From the IMG/VR virus record IMGVR_UViG_3300045922_000411, positions 1-28,395 of that record: a stretch of DNA of 28,395 nt, one strand, 5' to 3'. Positions 1,574 through 17,900 of this stretch are shown here, piece after piece; within the stretch, counting starts at the first letter, position 1; every line of letters starts with the position of its first letter. A program made the translations under genes and the position numbers. The stretch is from a virus. Below the pieces are notes generated by a model. The model saw only the letters and a program-made list of their open reading frames with translations. It made no database searches and was not told the DNA's origin.

Positions 1574-1769
1574 CGCTCAGCTCCGCGTACAGGCGTTTGC
1601 GCGGCCAGTGGGCCTTCGGCAGGCGCCACTTGCCAGGCTGAATCTCCTCGTCGTCCCAGCCCGCCCGGAACGTCCGCTCTACCCCGCAGGCGCGGCAGCG
1701 GCCGGAGACGTGACTGTTGCCCGTTGGGGTGTCGAGCACCCAGCGGTGGCGGCAAGTGGTCGTGGTCAT
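1560..1769 (-). CDS. Small zinc-ribbon-like protein
   Basis: A 69-residue protein with CRHRW near residues 6-10 and GRCRACGVERTF near 23-34, a Cys/His pair followed by a CxxC knuckle. This pattern is common in small phage proteins that bind one zinc. The remainder is basic and tryptophan-rich (GKWRLPKAHWPRKR), which would suit nucleic-acid binding. The ATG at 1769 overlaps the stop of the preceding gene in an ATGA, a sign of translational coupling, and has a GGGGGGA ribosome site. The zinc site is read from the sequence; the role is unknown. Confidence 0.75.
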   Translation of the reverse strand: MTTTTCRHRWVLDTPTGNSHVSGRCRACGVERTFRAGWDDEEIQPGKWRLPKAHWPRKRLYAELSDDLW

Positions 1770-2002
1770 CGGTCCCCCCGTTCGAGCTGGATGAGCGTGG
1801 CGGCCAGGTAGATGGCCAGGTCGAGGGCCTCGTCGAGCGCCTCGTAGACGAGGTCACGCTCGTCAGCGGAGAGGTCCCATGCGCCGTACTGGGCGTGCCC
1901 GAGGGCGAGGCGCTGCTCGATGAGCCGGTTGAGTCGTGTGGACTCAGCCGCGATGCGCCCGACGCGCCCGGCGATCAGGTGTGCGATGGCTGGCTCATCC
2001 AT
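1766..2002 (-). CDS. Small helical protein, MazG-like motif (tentative)
   Basis: The chosen ATG at 2002 has a strong GGAGG seven bases upstream. The open frame extends further upstream into the repeat array, but that extension is compositionally array sequence and is rejected. The 78-residue product (MDEPAIAHLIAGRV...) is almost wholly helical, with YGAWDLSADERDLVYEALDE and then ALDLAIYLAATLIQLE. The E...DE..D..Y spacing recalls MazG or phage dNTP pyrophosphohydrolase-like helices, but the protein is too short to assign that activity. It is the first gene downstream of the repeat array and couples by ATGA to the zinc-ribbon gene. Confidence 0.75.
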   Translation of the reverse strand: MDEPAIAHLIAGRVGRIAAESTRLNRLIEQRLALGHAQYGAWDLSADERDLVYEALDEALDLAIYLAATLIQLERGDR

Positions 2003-2029
2003 GGCGACCTCCGTGTGACCCGATGACGT

Positions 2030-3639
2030 GGGTGGACCTTCCGTAGCTGGTTGGGGCTCAATAATCTCGGGTTTTCCTTTGACTTCATGGCTTTGCCCCC
2101 TGTGCGCTGGCTCGATTTGGGTTGTCCTCTCACACCGTGGCTCTTCCGCGCGGGTAGCCCTGCGCCGGCAAGGCTTGCGCCGTGCCAAGACCTAAGGGTT
2201 GCCCTTTTCGACTTGGCTCCTGGACCGGTGCTCGGTGACGGTGGGTTGACCTGTACCGGCGAGGCTCTGCGTGCTGACGCCAAAGGCTCTGGGTAGACCG
2301 GGCAAGTTCTGGCTCCGCGCGCGTTGCTCCGCGGGCGTGGGTTGACCTGCCGCGAGTTGGCTCCGCGCGCGTGGCTTCTTCCCTTTGGGTCGACCTGAAA
2401 GGCACAGGCTCCGCGCGCGTTGCTCCACCGCAATGGGTTGACCTGCCGCACGGTGGCTGCGCGCGCGTTGCTCCCAGCGCTTGGGTTGGCCTGAGTTTCG
2501 GTGGCTCCGCGCGCGTTGCTGGTCCGTTCTGGGTTGACCTCGCGGCGAATGGCTCCACACAAACGCCCCTACGAACAAGGGTCTCCCTCATGACTGATGG
2601 CTCCGCGCGCGTTGCTCGCGGAAGATGGGTTGACCTGTACTGCCACGGCTCCCCCGCGCGTTGCTAAAGGGCCTTGTTTTGACCTGGCCTCGCGAGGCTC
2701 CGCAAGCTCCTTCGGGGCGGGTTGGCCTGGGGAACACAGGCTGGGCGAGCGGTGCCACTACTCCGCGGGTGGGCCTTTGCAGGCTCGGCTCGGGGGGTAT
2801 GACTGCAGGGCGATGGGTTGACCTCGACCTTGATGGCTCCGCGCGCGCTCCTCCTTGGTGGGTCGTCCTCGGTCTTGGTGGCTCCCCGCGCTTTGCTTCT
2901 TCGTGAAGGGTTGCCCTAATTCTCCCTGGCTCCGCGCGCGTTGCTCCGACACCCTGGGTTGACCTGAGGGTGACCGGCTCCGCGCGCGTTGCTTTTGGTA
3001 GAAGGGTTGACCTAAAGACCCCTGGCTCCGCGCGCGTTGCTCCACAATGATGGGTTGACCTCGCAACACATGGCTCCGCGCGCGCGACTGTCATTTTCTG
3101 GGTTGACCTTGGGCACCCTGGCTCTCCCCCATTCGCTGTCACTTGCGGGTTTGCACCCCTGCCTTCTGGCTGTCCCCCAGCCCACCGCGCGGAAGGGCAA
3201 CGGGTCATCCCCACTTTGGCGGCTCGCGTGGACGGTGCTTGGGGATGGCGGGTTGACCTCAGGTCACTTGGCTCCCCCCGCACGAGCTGCCGGGTTGTCC
3301 CCACACCTGGCGGCTGGAGTGATGCTGCGATCGCAGGGTGGCCCACAGGACGATGGCTCAGTCGCACGGGTTCGCCACGCTGCCACGGCTCGTTCCCAGC
3401 GCAGGACTCAGCGGGTTCCCCTTTCTCGCCCGGCTCGCTGGTGACGCCGGTAGCGTCGGGTTGGCCTGCTCGCTTGGGCTGGCCACCTCCACATCTTGGC
3501 TTTGCGCTTATCCTGTCGGGTGCCCCTTTGTGTGCTCGGCTCGACGCCGCCGAAGCAGGGTCGCCCTCCAGCGATCGGCTGGACCCGCAAGCGCTCGCTT
3601 CCCACACCGGGTCGACCCTGTTCCTCAGGCTGACGACGC
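2030..3639. repeat. Array of about 35 direct repeats with two conserved blocks and two variable decamers
   Basis: On the plus strand the core unit is 48 bp: block A GGCTCCGCGCGCGTTGCT (18), a variable decamer, block B GGGTTGACCT (10), a second variable decamer. Seven units carry block A exactly (starts 2311, 2407, 2503, 2599, 2928, 2976, 3024) and eleven carry block B exactly. Other 48-bp units start at 2215, 2263, 2359, 2455, 2551, 2739, 2787, 2880, 3072 and 3120. Edge units are decayed and range from 21 to 53 bp, including short forms of 33-34 bp (2055, 2139) that lack the 14 bp between GGCT and the first decamer. The decamers listed all differ. The array ends exactly at the stop of the IS110-like gene on one side and 28 bp before the ATG of the next gene on the other. 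This is the only stretch over 300 bp without an accepted gene. No hallmark of CRISPR, integron or diversity-generating retroelement is present. Confidence 0.93.
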
Positions 3640-4680
3640 TCATTGCAGGTCCTCGATGTCGATGGGCTCATGGCGGATGATGCGCAGGATGGGACCAAGC
3701 TCCAGCTCGGGGTACAGGTCGGGGACCGGGTGATTTTTCTCCTTCCACCCCTTTTCCATTGGCCAGTTGGGCGGCGCGATGTAGTCGTGATGACCAAGCT
3801 GCGAGATGGCGTACGGCTGCTCCCACGGCTCGTCCGACACGCTCTCCCACGACACCTGGGCGAAGTGACTGAGCAACAGCTTGACGGTCCACCGGCGGGC
3901 CCGCCGGTCGATGTGCATCGGCACGAGCATCGCGCGCTTCGGGTCAGGCGTGGCTGCGAGGATGGCCCGGTTGATGGCGCCGTTGGCGGCGATGGGCGAT
4001 CTGCCAAGCGCCATCAAACCAAGCAGCTTTTCGGGGTCGACGGCGCCGGAGAGGAAGGCCTGCGACCCTTGGCTCTTCGCGTGCGGGAGCCTTGTCAGCG
4101 CCTGCTCCGCGTAGTGGCCCTGGATGTTGAGGAGCCATTCGCGTGCCTTGCGCTGCTCGTAAAGCTGGCGGTACCACGCATTGCGCTGGCGCACCATCTG
4201 GTCGCCGGCGTAGTACGCCATCAAACGGAATTGCCGGTTGTACTTCGCGCGCCGCTCCGGCGTGAGCCCCGCGTACGCCCAGAGCGACTGGGGCCGCCGG
4301 CAGTACTGCGGGGCGGACAGCGCGCACAGGCCGGAGGCGATGACGGGCCCGATGCCGGTGATGGTCAGCGCCCAGCGGCCACGCTCCGACGAGCGGGCGT
4401 ACTGGCCCAGCACGCCGACCATGGCGTCTTCGAGCATTTCGAGGGCGCCCTCGAACGTGTCGAGCGTGAGGTTCGGCAGGTCCCGCTTGCGGAGGTCCTT
4501 GGCCTGGTTGCCCATGGCCACGCGGTGCTTCTGGAGCGCGAGGTAGCTGCTGACGAGGAACTTGGCCTCGGCTTCCGAGATGCGGTCACGGCGGGTGATG
4601 CGGCGCAGGTCGCGGAGTAGCGTCTGGCCTGGAGCGATTTCGACGTCGGTGATGTCTTTCAGCGTTGCGACTGCGGTCAT
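3640..4680 (-). CDS. IS110-family transposase-like protein, C-terminal (Transposase_20) domain only
   Basis: A 346-residue protein. A helical N-terminus (1-100) precedes a helix-hairpin-helix motif ITGIGPVIASGL (about 108-119) and WAYAGLTPERR (about 134-144), the signature order of the IS116/IS110/IS902 C-terminal domain. A later basic helix, HIDRRARRWTVKLLLSHF (about 257-274), matches the position of the family's K...ARKLL helix. The N-terminal DEDD (RuvC-like) nuclease domain of active IS110 transposases is absent, and no serine stands at the usual place after GLTP, where the sequence reads ERRAKYNRQF. No terminal repeats are seen. The ATG has a strong GGAGG and overlaps the preceding stop by ATGA, so it is a resident operon gene and not a fresh insertion. 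The repeat array begins right at its stop codon. DNA or RNA binding is likely; catalysis is doubtful. Confidence 0.85.
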   Translation of the reverse strand: MTAVATLKDITDVEIAPGQTLLRDLRRITRRDRISEAEAKFLVSSYLALQKHRVAMGNQAKDLRKRDLPNLTLDTFEGALEMLEDAMVGVLGQYARSSERGRWALTITGIGPVIASGLCALSAPQYCRRPQSLWAYAGLTPERRAKYNRQFRLMAYYAGDQMVRQRNAWYRQLYEQRKAREWLLNIQGHYAEQALTRLPHAKSQGSQAFLSGAVDPEKLLGLMALGRSPIAANGAINRAILAATPDPKRAMLVPMHIDRRARRWTVKLLLSHFAQVSWESVSDEPWEQPYAISQLGHHDYIAPPNWPMEKGWKEKNHPVPDLYPELELGPILRIIRHEPIDIEDLQ

Positions 4681-6726: not shown

Positions 6727-6740
6727 CTGTGTCCTCCTTG
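6727..6740 (-). promoter_or_regulatory. Recurring start-associated leader, copy 2
   Basis: CAAGGAGGACACAG on the minus strand, 2 bases before the ATG at 6724; identical to copies 1 and 3. It fixes the start of this gene. Confidence 0.75.
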
Positions 6741-6808
6741 GCCTGTCTCATCAGTGCCGGGCGGCCATCCCCGGCAGACTGGGCGATGAGCCCAGTTTCG
6801 ACAGTCGG

Positions 6809-9345: not shown

Positions 9346-9560
9346 GCCATCACCCCCTCGGCGCGCAGCCTCTCGGCGATGCGCTGTTTGATGCGCTCCC
9401 GTATCTCCGGGTCGATGTCGAGTTCGATGGGCGTGATGACCACGTTGCCTCGGCCACTCTCGGCGATGGCGACCGCGAGCCGGAATGCCTCGTTGCGGTC
9501 ATCCACGTCGATGAGGTACCGGGCGCCGTTACGCTCCCACGTCACCGCCCACGACTCCAT
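9342..9560 (-). CDS. Small hypothetical protein, 72 aa
   Basis: The ATG at 9560 is preferred over a GTG one codon earlier because GGAGG is spaced better for it. The product (MESWAVTWERNGARYLIDVD...) has a beta-hairpin-like N-terminus and an amphipathic C-terminal helix (DPEIRERIKQRIAERLRAEG). It overlaps the preceding gene by 32 bp and the amidase by 4 bp. No family is recognised. A tail or lysis accessory role is positional inference. Confidence 0.7.
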   Translation of the reverse strand: MESWAVTWERNGARYLIDVDDRNEAFRLAVAIAESGRGNVVITPIELDIDPEIRERIKQRIAERLRAEGVMA

Positions 9561-9843
9561 CACTCACCTCCCCCTTGATGCCCTCGGCCAGCAGGCGCAG
9601 CGCGCGAAATGGCTCGGGCGTGACCGCGCGCAACTGCCGATACTGGTCGAGGTCGACCCCTGCGATGGGCACATCCCGGTCGAGCTCGTCGAGCACAGCC
9701 GAAATGGCCTCGTCCTCGGTTTTCCAGTCACCGACGGCCACCTCATCGAACCGCGAGCTGCCATCGGTGTAAGCGTTGAGCACCTCCACCACGGCCACCC
9801 AGCCCCCGGGGACACGTCGCATTTGCCTGATGACCCTGCTCAT
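9529..9843 (-). CDS. Hypothetical protein, 104 aa
   Basis: The ATG at 9843 overlaps the stop of the glycine-rich gene by ATGA. The product shows MRRVPGGWVAVVEVLNAYTD, VAVGDWKTEDEAISAVLDEL and a Gly/Val-rich end. The alternating strand-helix character suggests a small globular protein. No family is recognised. It lies between the tail-tip genes and the lysis cassette. Confidence 0.72.
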   Translation of the reverse strand: MSRVIRQMRRVPGGWVAVVEVLNAYTDGSSRFDEVAVGDWKTEDEAISAVLDELDRDVPIAGVDLDQYRQLRAVTPEPFRALRLLAEGIKGEVSDGVVGGDVGA

Positions 9844-11090
9844 GGATTCGCCCTCAGCACGAGCACGACGCCGTTGGCGCCATTGCCGCCGGCTGCGCCG
9901 TTAGAACCAGATGCGCCAGAGCCAGCCCCAATGCCGTAGGTACCTTTCCCGGACCCGCCAGATGCTCCTGCCCCGGCCGCCCCACCGGTCCCACCTGGGG
10001 CCGTGATGGTGCCCTGGTTGACAATATCGACAGCAAGGACACAGACGAGTCCGCCGCCACCACCTCCACCACCACCTCCACCACCACCTCCTCCTCCCCC
10101 GGCTGCGGCGTACTGGCTCGTGTTGTTGCCGCCCTCGCCGTTTCCGCCGTTCTGACCATTCTGGCCGTTCTGACCATTCTGCCCGGCGGCCCGGATGGTG
10201 CCCTGGTTATCGAGGATTTCGCAGCAGATGAGGAGCATGCCGCCACCGGCGCCGCCGTTACCACCGTTACCACCATTTCCGCCCGCGCCGGAAGAAACTC
10301 CGGTCAGGTCACTCCCGTCGAGTGCCCCGTTGGACCCGCTTCCGCCACCGCCGCCGCCACCACCACCAGCCCCGCCAGTGAAGCCGCGGAAATAGTCGAG
10401 AATGACGCCAAGGAGGTCGCGCTCGTGCGTGCTTGCGGGGGCGCTTTGGCCTGCCTGGCTAGCCCCTCCGCCCACTCCACCGCTGTAGTTCGTGTTGCCT
10501 TTGCCACCATTGCCACCACCAGCGCCCGTCCCGGAAGCAAGGGGCCCGTAGCCGCCCGCGTAGCTGCCATTGCCACCCCCTCCAGACCCCCCAGCACCGC
10601 CGGCTGCGGCGATACCAAGTCTCTGGCCCGTGTTCGCGCCATCTGCGCCCGGGTTTCCTGCCTGCCCGTTCGTGCCAACGCTCCCACTTCCCGGGGAGCC
10701 CGTTCGCCCGGCTGGCCCACTCCCCCCACCGCCCCCCGTCCCCCCGGGCGCCCCGCGCCCGTCGCAGTGGAGGACGGCGCCCGAGCCGATGCTGACCTTG
10801 CGGGCGAAGATGAAGCACGGTGACGCGCCCACGTCCACGGTCACGCCCGCAGCGATGTTCAGCTCGTCGTAGTACAGGACGCCGCGGGTGGGGCTGAGCG
10901 TGGTGTTGCTCGTGATGTTGGCGATGGTCGTGCTCCCGTTGTTGAACGGGAACCGGATACCCAGCTCGCCGAGCTGGTTGACGTCGAAGATTTTCTGGAT
11001 GGCAATGTCCGCCGTGGGATTGAAGACCACGTTGCCAAACGCGCCGTACCCCGGAGCCTGTGTCGCCCTGTCCCTCACACCCCTGACCAT
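9840..11090 (-). CDS. Glycine-rich tail-tip or fibre adhesin-like protein
   Basis: A 416-residue protein. Residues 1-110 form a beta-rich head (VRGVRDRATQAPGYGAFGNV, then strands with SIGSGAVLHCDG). From about 110 on it is dominated by Gly runs with Asn, Ala and Ser, including 17 consecutive glycines (10050-10100) and a GQN tandem. This resembles the polyglycine-II sandwich of phage S16 gp38-type adhesins and glycine-rich tail fibre domains, where loops at the tip bind the host. Two short hydrophobic strands (MLLICCEIL, LVCVLAVDIV) interrupt the runs. GGAGG lies before the ATG. Receptor binding is inferred from composition and place. Confidence 0.78.
   Translation of the reverse strand: MVRGVRDRATQAPGYGAFGNVVFNPTADIAIQKIFDVNQLGELGIRFPFNNGSTTIANITSNTTLSPTRGVLYYDELNIAAGVTVDVGASPCFIFARKVSIGSGAVLHCDGRGAPGGTGGGGGSGPAGRTGSPGSGSVGTNGQAGNPGADGANTGQRLGIAAAGGAGGSGGGGNGSYAGGYGPLASGTGAGGGNGGKGNTNYSGGVGGGASQAGQSAPASTHERDLLGVILDYFRGFTGGAGGGGGGGGGSGSNGALDGSDLTGVSSGAGGNGGNGGNGGAGGGMLLICCEILDNQGTIRAAGQNGQNGQNGQNGGNGEGGNNTSQYAAAGGGGGGGGGGGGGGGGGLVCVLAVDIVNQGTITAPGGTGGAAGAGASGGSGKGTYGIGAGSGASGSNGAAGGNGANGVVLVLRANP
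10050..10100 (-). repeat. Polyglycine-coding low-complexity tract
   Basis: Seventeen consecutive glycine codons, mostly alternating GGT and GGA. Such a tract is prone to slippage; all 51 bp are in frame, so length changes in steps of one codon would be tolerated. Confidence 0.85.
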
Positions 11091-11101
11091 GTGCTACCTC
11101 C

Positions 11102-12481
11102 TCACAGCGCCTGCGCGTAGAAGTCATCGAATCGCGTCGCGGTCGAACCCCGCGCGAACAGCCCGGCCCGGTCCATGGTCACGTGCTGGCTCACCGTCGT
11201 GTCGATGCGCAGCACCCGGTCGACCCACACCCGCACCCGCTCGCCCTGGCAGATCATCCGCACCTCCGCCGTCGCCGAGGGTGTCCACGCCGCCGTGGCC
11301 ACCGTTGTCTCCACACCGGCGGCAAACACCGCGAGGTGGACAAGTGAATCGCCCCGGTCCACGTAGGCGGCGATGAAGTTGCTGGTGTCCTGCAACCTCG
11401 CTACCACGCCCGCCTCGGCGGAGCCGGTCAGCGACGAGATGCGCGTCTCGACCACCACGTCGAACGGGGCAATACGCGGTGCCAGGCCGGTAATGGTGAT
11501 GGCCGCCGGGGCGCCCGTCGCCCGTGCCTCCTGGAAGTTCGGGGCCAGCCCGGAGATAGTGATGGCCCCGGGCATGCCAGCCGCGAGCATGGCGGCGAGC
11601 GATGGCGCAAGGCCGGCAAGTGAGACGGAAGCGGGGGAGCCGAAGGGGAGGGTGGGGGTTGGCCCGAACGCCACCCCCCGACCAATTCCAGTCGGCAGCG
11701 TCCCCGGGTCGGCGTACTTTGTGCCGAAACCGCTCGACCACGGGTAGACGTTGATGTAGGGGGAGTCGGCATGCCCGATGGCGATGGCGTCACCGGACGG
11801 ACTAAACGCCACACTGTAGCCAGCCACAGGCAGCGTCCCCGGGTTGGCGTACTTCGTGCCGAAACCGTTGTTCCACGGGTAGACACTGATGTACGGGGGG
11901 ACTTCATGCGCGACGGCGATGGCGTCACCAGACGGGCTAAACGCAACCCCAAAGCCATCCCCAGTCGGCAGCGTCCCAGGGTCGGCGTACTTCGTGCCGA
12001 AACCGCTCGACCACGGGTAGACGCTGATGCGGGGGGAGCTGGCATGCGCGACGGCGATGGCGTCACCAGACGGGCTAAACGCCACCCCAAAGCCATTCCC
12101 AGTCGGCAGCGTCCCCGGGTTGGCGTACTTCGTGCCAAAACCGCCAGACCACGGGTAGACGCTGATGCGGGGGGAGCTGGCATGCCCGACGGCGATGGCG
12201 TCACCAGACGGGCTAAACGCCACCCCAAAGCCATTCCCAGTCGGCAGCGTCCCCGGGTTGGCGTACTTCGTGCCGAAACCGTTGTTCCACGGGTAGACGC
12301 TGACGTAGGGGGAGCTGACATGCGAGACGGCGATGGCGTTACCTGATGGGCTAAAAGCCACGCCGCGGCCATCCCCAGTCGGCAGCGTCCCAGGGTCGGC
12401 GTACTTCGTGCCAAAACCGCCAGACCACGGGTAGACGCTGATGTAGGGGGAATTGCCGTGCGCGACGGCGATGGCGCCCAT
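11102..12481 (-). CDS. Beta-propeller protein with C-terminal lectin-like domain
   Basis: A 459-residue protein. Residues 4-273 are six repeats of 41-46 residues containing SPYISVYPW, GFGTKYADPGTLPTG and GVAFSPSGDAIAV, the WD40-like layout of a beta-propeller. A linker with three copies of an ITISGLAP-like motif follows (about 290-335). The C-terminus (about 340-459) with FDVVVETRISSL, VVARLQDTSNFIAAYVDRGD and VRVWVDRVLRIDT resembles concanavalin/LamG-type glycan-binding domains. The likely role is a tail-tip receptor-binding protein. Repeats are nearly identical at DNA level, which marks recent expansion. GAGGT lies about 6 bases before the ATG. Confidence 0.82.
   Translation of the reverse strand: MGAIAVAHGNSPYISVYPWSGGFGTKYADPGTLPTGDGRGVAFSPSGNAIAVSHVSSPYVSVYPWNNGFGTKYANPGTLPTGNGFGVAFSPSGDAIAVGHASSPRISVYPWSGGFGTKYANPGTLPTGNGFGVAFSPSGDAIAVAHASSPRISVYPWSSGFGTKYADPGTLPTGDGFGVAFSPSGDAIAVAHEVPPYISVYPWNNGFGTKYANPGTLPVAGYSVAFSPSGDAIAIGHADSPYINVYPWSSGFGTKYADPGTLPTGIGRGVAFGPTPTLPFGSPASVSLAGLAPSLAAMLAAGMPGAITISGLAPNFQEARATGAPAAITITGLAPRIAPFDVVVETRISSLTGSAEAGVVARLQDTSNFIAAYVDRGDSLVHLAVFAAGVETTVATAAWTPSATAEVRMICQGERVRVWVDRVLRIDTTVSQHVTMDRAGLFARGSTATRFDDFYAQAL
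11663..12472 (-). repeat. Six tandem 138-bp repeats inside the propeller gene
   Basis: Four units of 138 bp, one of 135 bp and one shorter terminal unit lie in frame. Long identical stretches recur, for example GTCGGCAGCGTCCC on the plus strand. Variation clusters at a few codons (the AHxxSP and WNNG/WSSG/WSGG positions). Confidence 0.88.
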
Positions 12482-12489
12482 CGCTTACC

Positions 12490-12864
12490 TCAGCCTTTCG
12501 GTGCCCCGCCGCCGCCGGGTGCACCACCGCCGGCCTGGGCGCCGCCGGCCGGCGTCACCCCGCCGCGTGCAGCCTCCTCCCGCGCCTTGATGCGCTCGTG
12601 GGCAGCCTTGAGACGGGTCACTGGCGGCAGCTCAGGCTTGAGCGCCTCGATGATCTGCGTGACCTCAGAGATGCGCTGGTCCGTCTCGTCGTGGAGCTGC
12701 TGGACGCGCTGGCGGAATTCCCCCCTTGCGCCGTTGGCCAGGATGCGGGCGAAGCGCTCCTTGTTGGCCTTGTGCATGAACAGGTCGCGTTCCTGCGCCA
12801 GCAAAGTGGCCGCCAGCATCTCGTCGCGCTCTTCCTGGGAAAGCAGCAGGAACTCGTCAGCCAT
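12490..12864 (-). CDS. Coiled-coil tail-associated protein
   Basis: A 124-residue protein beginning MADEFLLLSQEERDEMLAAT, with a long charged helix (about 8-100) and a Gly/Ala/Pro-rich tail GGAQAGGGAPGGGGAPKG. The ATG at 12864 has a strong GGAGG. It lies between two virion-protein genes and is most likely a small structural or chaperone-like tail protein; the family is not recognised. Confidence 0.75.
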   Translation of the reverse strand: MADEFLLLSQEERDEMLAATLLAQERDLFMHKANKERFARILANGARGEFRQRVQQLHDETDQRISEVTQIIEALKPELPPVTRLKAAHERIKAREEAARGGVTPAGGAQAGGGAPGGGGAPKG

Positions 12865-12875
12865 GGATAACCTCC

Positions 12876-13310
12876 TTAGCTCGTGGTGAACTGGATGATG
12901 CCGTTCGTGTTGAACTGCAGGATGAGACTGTTGCCGTTGCTGATGGTCACGTTCGCCGGTGTGTTGTCGAGCAGGCAGTAGGCCACCAGCGGCTTCCCCG
13001 TCGGCGTGTCGTCGTAGATGATGGCGTAGCGGAACGTGCAGTTGCCGCCACTCGCGGTGATGGTCACGTCGTCAGCGTCGAACGTGGTAGTCAGGCCCGA
13101 GCGGGTGACCGTGACGTTCGCCAGCGTCGGCCGCGTGTAGTTGCTCGCTTCGTTCGAGCTAACATCCGCGATGACCGAGTGCCCCGACTGGTTCGGCGTG
13201 TATGCGCTGGTGACGAGAATGATCTTGAAGGTGTGGCCGTCCAGGTCGAGGTTGGCCTTGGCCACTCCCTCGACGAACGCGCCATACACTTTCCACGGGT
13301 CTGCTGGCAT
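12876..13310 (-). CDS. Beta-rich virion protein
   Basis: A 144-residue protein with KVYGAFVEGVAKANLDLDGH then TFKIILVTSAYTPN and a series of strands (TVTRSGLTTTFDADDVTITA, FRYAIIYDDTPTGKPLVAY). It matches the look of small phage tail-fibre or head-decoration proteins in which residues 1-50 describe an N-terminal strand-helix and the rest a beta-sandwich. GGGGAG lies before the ATG. Placement after the tail hub favours a tail-tip protein. Confidence 0.75.
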   Translation of the reverse strand: MPADPWKVYGAFVEGVAKANLDLDGHTFKIILVTSAYTPNQSGHSVIADVSSNEASNYTRPTLANVTVTRSGLTTTFDADDVTITASGGNCTFRYAIIYDDTPTGKPLVAYCLLDNTPANVTISNGNSLILQFNTNGIIQFTTS

Positions 13311-13319
13311 CTCTCTCCC

Positions 13320-14912
13320 CTATGCCACCGCAACATGTGGCGTTTGTAGTGTCGTTGACGTTGGGGCCGCGGCGTTCGAGCTGATCGCGAAGCTCCCCGC
13401 GGTCCACGTGTCGCCGCTGAACGATGTGCCGAGCGCACCGTTCGCCCGGTCGAAGGTGTCAAACACAATCTTGTCCAAATTCCGGTAGACGTAGCTCGGC
13501 ACCAGCGCCACCTGGCAGTTGAAGCTCTTTCCCGCCCAGTTCGGTGGCACCTGGTAGGTCAGGCTCTCGATGTACCATGTGTCGTCCACCCCTGAGACCG
13601 GGTCGGCGTACTTGATGAGGTCACCCAGTTCGGCGGTGAGCAGTTTCGGGATGGCCGAGCCCGTCGGCTGGAAGACGAGGTGCAACGTCGGCCACGGGTA
13701 GCGGCCCACGCGCAGCTCCTGGTAGGCGTAGTCGCGCAGCTTCTGCCCCGTGTCCCCGGCGAACGGCACATCGAACCGCAGCTCGCGCCCTGCCGGCAGC
13801 CCGTCCTGCGACAGGATGAACGCCGCCTCAGGCCGGTCGGCGAAGAACTCCGTCGGCTGCCCGCGAATCTGGAACTTGGTGACGTAGATGGTCGCCGTGT
13901 AGGTGTTGCGCAGCCTGAGCCGGAACCTGCCACCGCCGAGGTCCGTCACCGTGACCTCCAGGTTCGAGGTCCGGTCGGTACCGCTGCCGTTCTGGGCACT
14001 GTTGGCCAGGTAGTCCACCACCGCAACGGGCTGCGTGAGCGCCACGTAGACCGAGTTGGCCTGGAACACCCGCTCGTAAATTTCCCCCGCCGCCAGTGCC
14101 ATCGAGGTCGCCGGCTTGGTGAACATATTCTGGGAGAAGGCGAAGATCGGCGTGTCCGCCTGCCCGTTGATGAACTTGGTCCCCCTGGCCGAGACCGACG
14201 TCACCAGCTCCAGCGGGTTGTGCTCGATCTCAATCGACACCGGCACCACACCGCCAGCCACTCCCCACGTGTCGTCCACCTGCCGTCTGACCCGCGACGC
14301 CCGCGACTCAAACCTCACCCGCCCCTGCGCGTCGCACCACAGCATGCCGCCCATCTCGCTGGCCGCGACCGCCATCAGGGCACTGAGCGGCTCCTCGCCA
14401 ACGGCGAAGTGCATCGGCAGGCTCTGCACACCGGCGTCAACATGGCGGGCGCCGACGTCGATGCCGATCGCATCGAGGACGGCGTTGATAGCCTGCCCGG
14501 TGGTCCTGGTCGTGCTTGCCGTGACGTTGACCGCAGGCGCCGACCGCATCACCTCAAGCAGGTCGTCACAGTCCACCCGGCACATTGGGACCTGCCCAGC
14601 CGCCCAGTTCACGCTCCACGTCATGGCATAGCCAGTCCAGATGGTGTAGTCGGTGCCCTGGTACGTTGCCGTCAGGCGGATGGGCACGCCGGGCTCAAGC
14701 AGCCCGTACAGCGGGGAAGACATGTTTTGTGGGGTGAACCTGCCGTCCTGGTTGTTCAGCGCGAGCGACATGCTCGACGTCCGCGGTTTTCCATCACGCC
14801 CGACGCCCCGGCTGATGGTCACCCCGTGCCCCGGCATGGTCACCCATGGCGTCAGGTCGGTCGACCACGTGCCGTCCCGGTCGAAGTCCGCCTCAACCCG
14901 CCACGTAATCAT
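13320..14912 (-). CDS. Tail hub / minor tail protein
   Basis: A 530-residue protein. The N-terminus (TWRVEADFDRDGTWSTDLTP then a SMSLALNNQDGRFTPQN motif) is typical of siphovirus tail-tip or baseplate hub proteins; the middle contains AINAVLDAIGIDVGAR and LSALMAVAASEMGGMLWCDA, then an RVRFESRA strand, as in Gp37/gp27-like hub folds. The C-terminus (KIVFDTFDRANGALGTSFSG) looks like the start of a carbohydrate-binding beta-sandwich. Its ATG overlaps the tape-measure stop by one base (TGATG). It likely joins the tail tube to the tip and receptor-binding proteins. Confidence 0.83.
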   Translation of the reverse strand: MITWRVEADFDRDGTWSTDLTPWVTMPGHGVTISRGVGRDGKPRTSSMSLALNNQDGRFTPQNMSSPLYGLLEPGVPIRLTATYQGTDYTIWTGYAMTWSVNWAAGQVPMCRVDCDDLLEVMRSAPAVNVTASTTRTTGQAINAVLDAIGIDVGARHVDAGVQSLPMHFAVGEEPLSALMAVAASEMGGMLWCDAQGRVRFESRASRVRRQVDDTWGVAGGVVPVSIEIEHNPLELVTSVSARGTKFINGQADTPIFAFSQNMFTKPATSMALAAGEIYERVFQANSVYVALTQPVAVVDYLANSAQNGSGTDRTSNLEVTVTDLGGGRFRLRLRNTYTATIYVTKFQIRGQPTEFFADRPEAAFILSQDGLPAGRELRFDVPFAGDTGQKLRDYAYQELRVGRYPWPTLHLVFQPTGSAIPKLLTAELGDLIKYADPVSGVDDTWYIESLTYQVPPNWAGKSFNCQVALVPSYVYRNLDKIVFDTFDRANGALGTSFSGDTWTAGSFAISSNAAAPTSTTLQTPHVAVA

Positions 14913-17900
14913 CAGTACGCCCTCGCCATCTCGCCGATGACCACGTCAGCGATGGTCCTGCCATCAATCTGCACCGTGACCTGCGGCGGCCCACCCCACC
15001 AGCCGGCGCCCTGCATGGCAGCGGCGCGTTGCTGCGGAGTCCCGATTGACCCGGCCAGCCACGGCTCCACCCATGCCTTGGCCACCGGATCCCAGACGAG
15101 GTCCTTCCCAAACGCCCCCTTCGGCGGGCCGCCATTCATCCGCCAGTCGTATTCGCCGGCGGGCGTCAGGCCTTCAGGCATGACCGGCCCGGCGCCAGGA
15201 GTTCCCCACCCACCGCTTGGCGCGGTCATGGCGGCGGCGATGTCGCGCGCGAGCTGGGCAGCCGCCAAGTTTGAGACGCCATTGCCCTGGTAGAACCCCA
15301 CCTGCAGCTCGTGCAGCCGCTGCCCGAGGGCCACGCGGAGGGCGTCATTCCCGACCGCGGCAATGGCCTTGCTGAGGTCGCCGAACATCGCCTCGATGTC
15401 CGCGTCGCTCATGACCTTGCCCTTGTCGAGGTTGGTCATGAGCTTGTCGGCGAGCTTGAGCATCTTCTCGCTGACCAGCGAACCCGTGCCCTTGTTGCTC
15501 CCGAGCGGGTCGAGTTGACCCTTGATCTGGTTAGCCACATCAATGATGGCCGCATTGGCCACCCCCAGCCCCTGCTCCAGCTCGACCTGCATGGTGTGGA
15601 TGGCCTGCTGGATACTCATGCGCAGGGTGTCGTCCATCACGGCGCCAGCAGCTCTGCTAAGCTGCTCGAAGATGGCCATGATGTCCTCTTTGGACAGCTC
15701 GACGCCTTTTTCGAGGTTTGCGGTGAGCTCCTTTGAAATGCGCGCCATCGCCGCCCGCATCTCGTCGATGATGCCGACCGCGATGCCCTGGCCGATCGGT
15801 TTGCCGACCTCGTCTCGCGCCACCTTGGAGGGCGAGGAGATTTGGAGGGCACGCTTGATGGCATCCATGATGCCTGACGCAGCCTGGCCAACCCGGGAGT
15901 AGACCGATGGTGAGTTCAGCCCCTGTGCAACGCCCTCACCAATGGCCTGCCCCACCGCCTGCCCGCGCCACTGGGCGGTTTGCTCACTGGCCAAGGCCGC
16001 ATCCAGGAGCGCCTCACCCGCCTCACGGGTCGGCTGCATCTGCGAGTAAATGCCGTCGGCGATGCCATCCCCGATCGCCGTGCCGCTGCGAATGGCGAGC
16101 TGATACCACTCCTCCGGCGCCAAGTCGTCCCGCAACAGATCAAGCAGCTCCCGGAACCGCTTGGCATCTCCATCGGTCAACGCCCGGTAGGCCTCGCCGA
16201 CACGCCGCAGGATGTCGATCTGCTCCTCTTGCGTGCGGCCGGTCTGCTGCATCGCCTCAAGAAGCCCGGCATACCCCTCCGCCCCCATGGCTTTGACCAG
16301 CCACTGCTGCATCCCCTTGATGGCCTCGGCGTTTGACTCGTAGCCCTTGCGCTGGGCCTCAATGGCCTCAATCTGCGCCTCAAGGGTGGCCATATAGGCC
16401 TTCTCGGCCGCGGTCAGTGAATCCTTGCGTACCTCAAGGTCCTCGTACTGTTCTTTCAAAACCGCGAGCTGGAAGCCAAGCGCCTGGTACTCAGGGTTGG
16501 ACTCAGCAAACCGCTCGGCCAGTTTTTTCAACGCAGAGTCCAAACGGTCGGCTCCGCCGGCCGCCTCGATGTATGCCGCGCCGAGGTCCTTGTACGTCGG
16601 AACCGCCTCGGAGACCGCTCTAGCTGTCGCCTCCTGCTCCCTTCGGTGCTCCTTGAGGGCCTTGATCTGCGCCTCTTCGGACTGCAGCCATTCGCGCTGC
16701 TTGAATTCCTTCTCCTTCATGATGGCGACGATGTTCGTCTCGGCGTCGAACACCTTCTGCAGCTCGGGCGGAAGTTCCCGGTACGCCTCAGCAAGGACAA
16801 GTGCGTCCGCCCCCTGCTGCTTCATCCACTTGGCTAGCTCGGCAATGCTTGCTTTGGCCGATTCCGCGTTAGAGGCGGCCTCTTGTATTGCAGCGTTCCG
16901 CTCCCAAAGCGGCTTGGTTTGGCCAGCGACGTCGTTGAATGCGGCCTGCGCCTGCGTAAACGCAGCGGTCTTTTCCCTCAGTAGCCCCATCACCACCGAA
17001 AGCTGGTCGGCTCCTTTGCCGGCTGCCTCAAGTCGTGCCTCAATCTCCTTCAGCGCCTCGGCGGCGCGCTTCTGGCCGGCTACGTCGCCAAACAGCCAGT
17101 CCATCAGCCCGTGGCCGCTCGTCTTTTGCAGCAGCAGGTCGAGGCCGAGTGCAAGCGCCCCAATGCCGGCGGTGACCCCAGTCAACCCCGCCGAGAGCGT
17201 CAGAGTGCCTGCCCGCATGGCCTTAAATGCGTCGACCAGTGCCATCGTCGCTTTCGTGGCCGGCCCGATGGCAATGGTCAGCGCCCCCATGCCGAGCGCG
17301 AGTGCCTGCGTCGAGGATGGCAGCCCGCTCAGGACGTTGACCACCTGCGTGGCGCCACCAGCCACGTCGGTCAGCGCGGGGACGACCATGCTCCCGATGC
17401 CGATGGCCATCGTCTCCAGCGAGCCCTTGAGCTCTTCAACCTGGCCTTTGAGGTTACCCATCCGCTGCCTGGCGACCTCGGAGGCGTCCGTGTCGCGCAT
17501 CTTGTTGGAGAGCGCCTCGAACTCCTCGCCCGTCATGCGCATCAAGCCAGCAGCCGTGCGGTAGGCGTCGTTGCCGAAGATGGTCTTGAGGGCCACGGTC
17601 TGCTGCTGCTCGCTGAGCCCGCCCAGCTTGTCGTGCAGCTCCTGCACGATCTCTTTCATCGGCCTGAGCTGGCCCTGCGCGTTGTAGAAGCTCAGGCCAA
17701 GCTCCTCCATCGTCGCCTTGGCCTTCTCACTGTTGCCAGACAGCGACGTAAGGAACACCTTGAAGCTCGTGCCGGCGTCAGCGCCGGAGGAGAAGTACTG
17801 CGCGGTCGCGGCGATTGCGGCCGAAAAGTCCTGGAAGCTGACGCCCGCCGCCGCCGCCACGCCACCACCCTGGGCGATGGCCAACCCGAGGTCCTCAACC

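What the first reader, a model, noticed from the sequence alone, without database searches (positions are those of the whole stretch)
2030..3639. Repeat array with two conserved blocks alternating with unique decamers
Seen: about 35 units on one strand; core unit 48 bp made of GGCTCCGCGCGCGTTGCT, a 10-base variable segment, GGGTTGACCT, and a second 10-base variable segment. Block centres are 24 bp apart, so conserved and variable parts alternate evenly. In sequential units the decamers read, for example, CCGACACCCT/GAGGGTGACC, TTTGGTAGAA/AAAGACCCCT and CCACAATGAT/CGCAACACAT, while the blocks are identical. Known: CRISPR arrays have one repeat and spacers near 30 bases; iterons and stoperators do not carry length-fixed unique inserts. 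Inference: the decamers may be guide-like (each unit offers two, as an IS110 bridge RNA offers two guide parts per loop), or the blocks may be a dense binding array. No described phage element known to me has this form.
Basis: partly seen in the sequence, partly recalled or inferred. Interest (0 to 1): 0.94.

Follow-up and report, generated by a model that had tools for sequence, protein, structure and literature searches.

The report
Phage TIGR-TasA guide RNA array
This is a viral array of paired 9-letter RNA guides next to the protein that should carry them to DNA (a TIGR-Tas system, a kind described in 2025), in an unusually long-repeat form, and a sibling phage shows that its core guides have been replaced wholesale.

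Summary
The array is real. That gene encodes a 346-aa protein matching the TIGR-Tas proteins TasR (PDB 9mty, E 3e-11) and TasH (21kl). Its AlphaFold model hits Tas complexes as all ten top PDB folds, then IS110 recombinases, and shows no nuclease domain: TasA. Six contigs with distant tas genes carry 36-nt dual-repeat arrays right after tas (AGCGAGCCA / AGACAACCC-like). The window repeats, AGGTCAACCC(A) (loop) and AGC-AACGCGCGCG-GAGCC(A) (edge), are those repeats with about 10 extra nt inside the edge, giving a 48-nt unit. The first base of each 'decamer' is usually A, so guides are 9 nt after a CCA-like box C, as in TIGR. So 'guide-like decamers' is essentially right; 'no described element has this form' is not (TIGR-Tas, Science 2025). 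In a sibling phage (tasA 98% identical, dS 0.30) core spacers are at chance identity while repeats and flanking units persist: wholesale guide turnover. No target was found in six phage genomes. Function (nuclease-free RNA-guided DNA binding) is inferred from characterised Tas proteins.

The parts
3640..4680 (-). tasA: 346-aa TIGR-associated protein, coiled coil plus Nop/Transposase_20-like RNA-binding domain, no nuclease domain
   Evidence: phmmer to TasR 9mty_A 3.1e-11 and TasH 21kl 1.2e-4; Pfam PF02371 E 0.0018, below its cut-off; phrog_4285 1.7e-20; AlphaFold model whose top ten PDB hits are Tas complexes; dN/dS about 0.07 against the sibling
2014..3631 (-). [quoted passage not shown]
   Evidence: same position in sibling L002; canonical 36-nt arrays after distant tas genes
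2795..3127 (-). core block 1: 7 units (AGCC at 3123, 3075, 3027, 2979, 2931, 2883, 2838), most with consensus edge and loop repeats; spacers fully different in the sibling
2315..2703 (-). core block 2: 8 units (AGCC at 2699 to 2362), most with consensus repeats; spacers fully different in the sibling
3128..3631 (-). tas-proximal irregular units, homologous unit for unit in the sibling; units at 3390 and 3358 are 100% identical
2704..2790 (-). two irregular units between the core blocks, conserved in the sibling (94% and 88%)
2014..2314 (-). distal irregular units; those at 2314, 2218 and 2175 are conserved in the sibling (93-97%)
1766..2002 (-). next gene of the same orientation (small protein MDEPAIAHLIAGRV...), GGAGG before its ATG; the array lies between it and tasA
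   Evidence: no terminator-like site found after the array

Best explanation
A phage-encoded TIGR-TasA system. Shown here: a solo Nop-domain Tas protein gene followed on the same strand by an array in which two different repeats, each starting AG(C/G) (box D) and ending (G/C)CC(A) (box C), alternate with two 9-nt spacers. Inferred from characterised relatives: the transcript is processed within edge repeats into one guide RNA per unit (about 48 nt, or 36 nt if the extra edge bases are trimmed); a TasA dimer binds it through the boxes of loop and edge; spacer A pairs with one DNA strand and spacer B with the other at one site. With no nuclease, TasA would bind, unwind and bend the target, most likely blocking transcription or replication of a competing element or a host gene (this last step about 0.4). 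Variant features: the edge repeat is expanded to about 18-19 nt (AGC-N10-GAGCC), and the consensus core guides have been replaced wholesale between sibling phages.
For: Protein: TasR and TasH are the best sequence relatives in the PDB and the best folds; the model is nearly all helical, with coiled-coil helices at 36-97 and no RuvC or HNH. Context: five viral contigs with distant Tas proteins (L005, L008, L009, L010, L011) and a Planctomycetota MAG contig (L012) carry 36-nt dual-repeat arrays directly downstream of tas, with edge AGCGAGCC(A) or GCGAGCCA and loop AGACAACCC, AGAAACCCA or TGAAACCCA; the window repeats align to these with a 10-nt insertion inside the edge. Box C: A at spacer position 1 is enriched in both arms in both sibling phages. 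Guide behaviour: tasA dS 0.30, dN 0.02, yet core spacers have 24-26% identity to the sibling's while flanking units keep up to 8-9 of 9. Definition of the family: PMC12045711.
Against: The edge repeat is longer than the published 8-12 nt and the unit is 48, not 36 nt. Many units are irregular and may be decayed. No terminator-like site was seen after the array. No target was found in the phage itself or five related records. No expression data. The structure model is of moderate confidence (mean pLDDT 68).
Confidence: 0.95

Rival explanations
1. Dense binding-site array (centromere-, iteron- or stoperator-like): the blocks bind a repressor or partition protein and the variable segments drift neutrally between sites.
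For: Blocks are conserved while spacers vary; phages carry such arrays; some tasA loci carry ParB-like genes (PMC12045711).
Against: Spacer length is held at 9-10 nt in both arms; the neighbouring protein is a Tas RNP protein and the same pairing recurs in distant phages; core spacers differ at chance level although synonymous sites of tasA are 75% identical, and conserved units lie in between, which neutral drift does not give.
Confidence: 0.02
2. Array of IS110-type bridge RNAs serving a transposase.
For: PF02371 and phrog_4285 name the neighbour a transposase; the IS110 recombinases ISCro4 and IS621 are the next folds after Tas.
Against: The IS110 N-terminal DEDD/RuvC domain is absent (model helical, N-terminus too short); Tas folds score far better than IS110 (1e-4 against 4e-2); IS110 uses one bridge RNA, not an array (PMC12045711). 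Insertion-sequence ends were not looked for.
Confidence: 0.01
3. A protein-coding repeat: ORF 2588-3643 (351 aa) overlaps the tasA stop by ATGA and runs through much of the array; 48 bp is 16 codons.
For: Open for 351 codons; that frame has only 2 stops in about 536 codons, and 1 in 449 in the sibling.
Against: pN/pS is 0.125/0.193 in that frame and about 0.14/0.15 in the others, against 0.02/0.25 for tasA; the repeat changes reading phase within the array in both phages; no family hit.
Confidence: 0.02

Closest known systems
TIGR-TasA dual-repeat systems (Faure et al. 2025, PMC12045711, e.g. FpTIGR)
   Same: Solo Nop-domain protein; array downstream; alternating edge and loop repeats with matching boxes D and C; two 9-nt spacers per unit; phage context.
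   Different: Edge repeat about 18-19 nt instead of 8-12; unit 48 instead of 36 nt; about 36 units instead of the usual 5-15, many irregular.
TIGR-TasA stem-loop arrays (same paper)
   Same: Longer sequence in place of the compact edge repeat, varying between units.
   Different: No more hairpin potential than shuffled edges (mean z +0.5 and +0.4), and the loop repeat is kept, so this is not the published stem-loop type.
TasH and TasR systems (PDB 21kl, 9w04, 9mty)
   Same: Homologous Nop/coiled-coil body and the same array logic.
   Different: No HNH or RuvC nuclease in the window protein.
IS110/IS621 bridge-RNA recombinases
   Same: Related RNA-binding domain and two-part guides.
   Different: No DEDD/RuvC recombinase domain; array of many guides rather than one bridge RNA.

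Membership tests
TIGR-Tas | Protein with a Nop domain related to Tas/IS110, adjacent to the array | tested here: met
TIGR-Tas | Two distinct alternating repeats per unit | tested here: met
TIGR-Tas | Spacers of 9 nt (exceptions up to 12) | tested here: met
   9 nt once the box-C A is assigned to the repeat
TIGR-Tas | Repeats of 8-12 nt (descriptive range given for dual-repeat arrays) | tested here: not met
   Loop 10-11 nt fits; edge 18-19 nt does not. A descriptive range rather than a defining property (stem-loop arrays in the same paper also depart from it), which is why this is filed as a variant.
TIGR-Tas | Boxes D and C matching between edge and loop repeats (both start alike and end alike) | tested here: met
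   AG(C/G)...(G/C)CC(A) in both repeats; comparable boxes in L005 and L008-L012
TIGR-Tas | Processing into unit-length tigRNA and tandem-spacer DNA targeting | not testable with these tools
   needs small-RNA sequencing and binding assays
[quoted passage not shown]
   No terminator-like site after the array; a gene of the same orientation follows.
TIGR-Tas, stem-loop array type | Palindromic hairpin-forming sequences in place of edge repeats | tested here: not met
IS110 transposon | N-terminal DEDD (RuvC-like) recombinase domain | tested here: not met
CRISPR | One repeat of about 25-36 nt with spacers of similar size | tested here: not met

The most novel reading that the evidence does not exclude
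TIGR arrays have an active, unit-by-unit guide-replacement process: in two sibling phages every consensus-core spacer pair has been exchanged while repeats, tasA and certain flanking guides persist; some spacers look changed in place (units 2266 and 3273 keep their idiosyncratic edge), and in a third phage (L010) loop-plus-spacer-B halves are reused with different A spacers. The expanded edge repeat would define a new guide-RNA subtype.
Probability: 0.4. Interest if true: 0.8.

Novelty: new variant of a known kind. Interest (0 to 1): 0.52.

Why it matters
How TIGR arrays arise, change and choose targets is stated as an open enigma in the defining paper (PMC12045711). This pair of sibling phages gives a natural comparison: guides turn over to chance identity within a time in which tasA synonymous sites diverge by 25%, as expected for guides under changing selection, while a subset of guides stays fixed. 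The long edge repeat also bears on tigRNA processing, since the edge is where the RNA is cut.

Tried and rejected
Self- and cross-targeting: every regular guide pair was scored in both orientations with gaps of 0-2 against the window, the sibling and four other tas phage records (G003 to 40 of 43 kb); no excess over shuffled A/B pairs, maximum 16 of 18. Targets in large collections were not searched: 18-nt exact matches are expected there by chance. Spacer A/B overlap or covariation: nothing beyond a marginal A~B value in the window, p 0.024. Edge hairpins: none. Coding array: rejected. No related DNA or protein in annotated phages or plasmids. Further arrays with the long edge were sought by two DNA patterns in viral contigs; only the sibling was found. 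Rfam: nothing in the array. Promoter scan: none.

Full report
What is there. The window is a virus record of 28,395 bases with tail, capsid and terminase genes of a tailed phage. Between a gene at 3640-4680 and a small gene at 1766-2002, both on the minus strand, lies a repeat array with 48-bp period. Read on the minus strand a regular unit is AGCC-N10-AGGTCAACCC-N10-AGCAACGCGCGCGG. The half-unit motif occurs 31 times in the array, mean 0.13 in Markov controls. Consensus units form two blocks; irregular units lie before, between and after them.

Gene 3640-4680 ends where the array begins. Its product matches, in the PDB, only TasR (9mty_A, 3.1e-11), TasH (21kl_A, 1.2e-4) and one insignificant entry. 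Pfam gives the IS110 Transposase_20 domain below cut-off, and PHROGs calls it a transposase. An AlphaFold model from eight relatives (mean pLDDT 68) is helical, with a coiled-coil pair and no nuclease fold; Foldseek ranks ten Tas chains first, then ISCro4 and IS621. The model is of moderate confidence; TM-scores (0.35-0.46 by query) are limited in part by a low-confidence insertion at 198-251. This is a TasA.

The array form is the family's. Relatives of this protein at roughly 21-36% identity were found in viral contigs. L005, L008, L009, L010 and L011 carry a 36-bp dual-repeat array immediately downstream, as does L012, in a Planctomycetota MAG. Their edges read AGCGAGCC(A) or GCGAGCCA and their loops AGACAACCC, AGAAACCCA or TGAAACCCA. 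The window loop AGGTCAACCC is one base longer than AGACAACCC; the window edge AGC-AACGCGCGCG-GAGCC is AGCGAGCC opened by ten bases. No array was seen beside L006 or L007. The published rule that edge and loop begin and end alike (box D, box C; PMC12045711) holds: both start AG and end CC. The next base is A in about 62% of units in both arms and about 60% in the sibling, against about 20% elsewhere in the spacers, so box C is CC(A) and the guide is 9 nt, the canonical length.

What is unusual. The edge is 18-19 nt against a stated 8-12, the unit 48 nt against 36, with about 36 units against the usual 5-15. It is not the published stem-loop type, because edges have no more hairpin potential than shuffled ones. 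I could read only the main text of the defining paper, so a long-edge example in its supplement cannot be excluded. Two pattern scans of viral contigs found this form only in the sibling.

Guide turnover. L002/G001 is a sibling phage, 88-93% identical over its long aligned stretches, with tasA dS 0.30 and dN 0.02. Core block 1 has 7 units here and 4 there, and block 2 has 8 here and 6 there (five of which fit the regular pattern used). Spacer identity over all core pairs is 2.3 and 2.1 of 9, against 2.5 for unrelated pairs, and the best joint pair is 9 of 18. Repeats in the same units are largely the same. Several irregular units are 93-100% identical. Neutral drift predicts about 75% identity, so the core guides were replaced or changed far faster. 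Units 2266 and 3273 keep their own edge variant but have one or both spacers changed, which suggests change in place; this rests on two units. Caveat: the downstream gene has pS 0.07, so recombination makes local divergence uneven, and the order of units within the core cannot be matched one to one.

Targets. No excess of paired matches was found in six phage records. The guides therefore probably do not target their own phage, and the real target, another element or the host, is unknown.

How it most likely works. Shown: gene, array, boxes, strand arrangement, turnover. Inferred by homology to TasA, TasR and TasH (PMC12045711): processing to single guides, dimeric TasA RNP, spacer A on one strand and spacer B on the other, DNA unwinding and bending without cutting. 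The effect, blocking a competitor's or the host's transcription or replication, is a suggestion (about 0.4); the identity as TIGR-TasA is near certain (0.95).

Noticed in passing
window 6737-6803 (-): Hammerhead type II ribozyme, 60.2 bits, well above the Rfam gathering score of 37.
   Followed up: no
window 11688-12476: 138-bp tandem repeat, 5.7 copies, inside ORF 11102-12481 (-), next to tail genes.
   Followed up: no
L010 4901-6030: TIGR array of about 32 units with an exact tandem unit duplication (5747/5783) and five pairs of units sharing all or most of loop plus spacer B but with unrelated spacer A: a hint of half-unit exchange.
   Followed up: partly
L012 4737-6190: Planctomycetota MAG contig (115 kb) with a clean TIGR-TasA array of about 17 units; the 3.9-Mb genome is held and could be tested for guide targets.
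   Followed up: partly
L008 2980-4230: Tas with an N-terminal stretch that looks HNH-like by eye (possible TasH), followed by a 36-nt array.
   Followed up: no
L006 and L007: Tas-like genes with no visible dual-repeat array in the flank held; may use stem-loop arrays or be orphans.
   Followed up: no
window 9552-14964: Stretch with no alignable counterpart in the otherwise about 90% identical sibling phage; tail genes probably exchanged.
   Followed up: no
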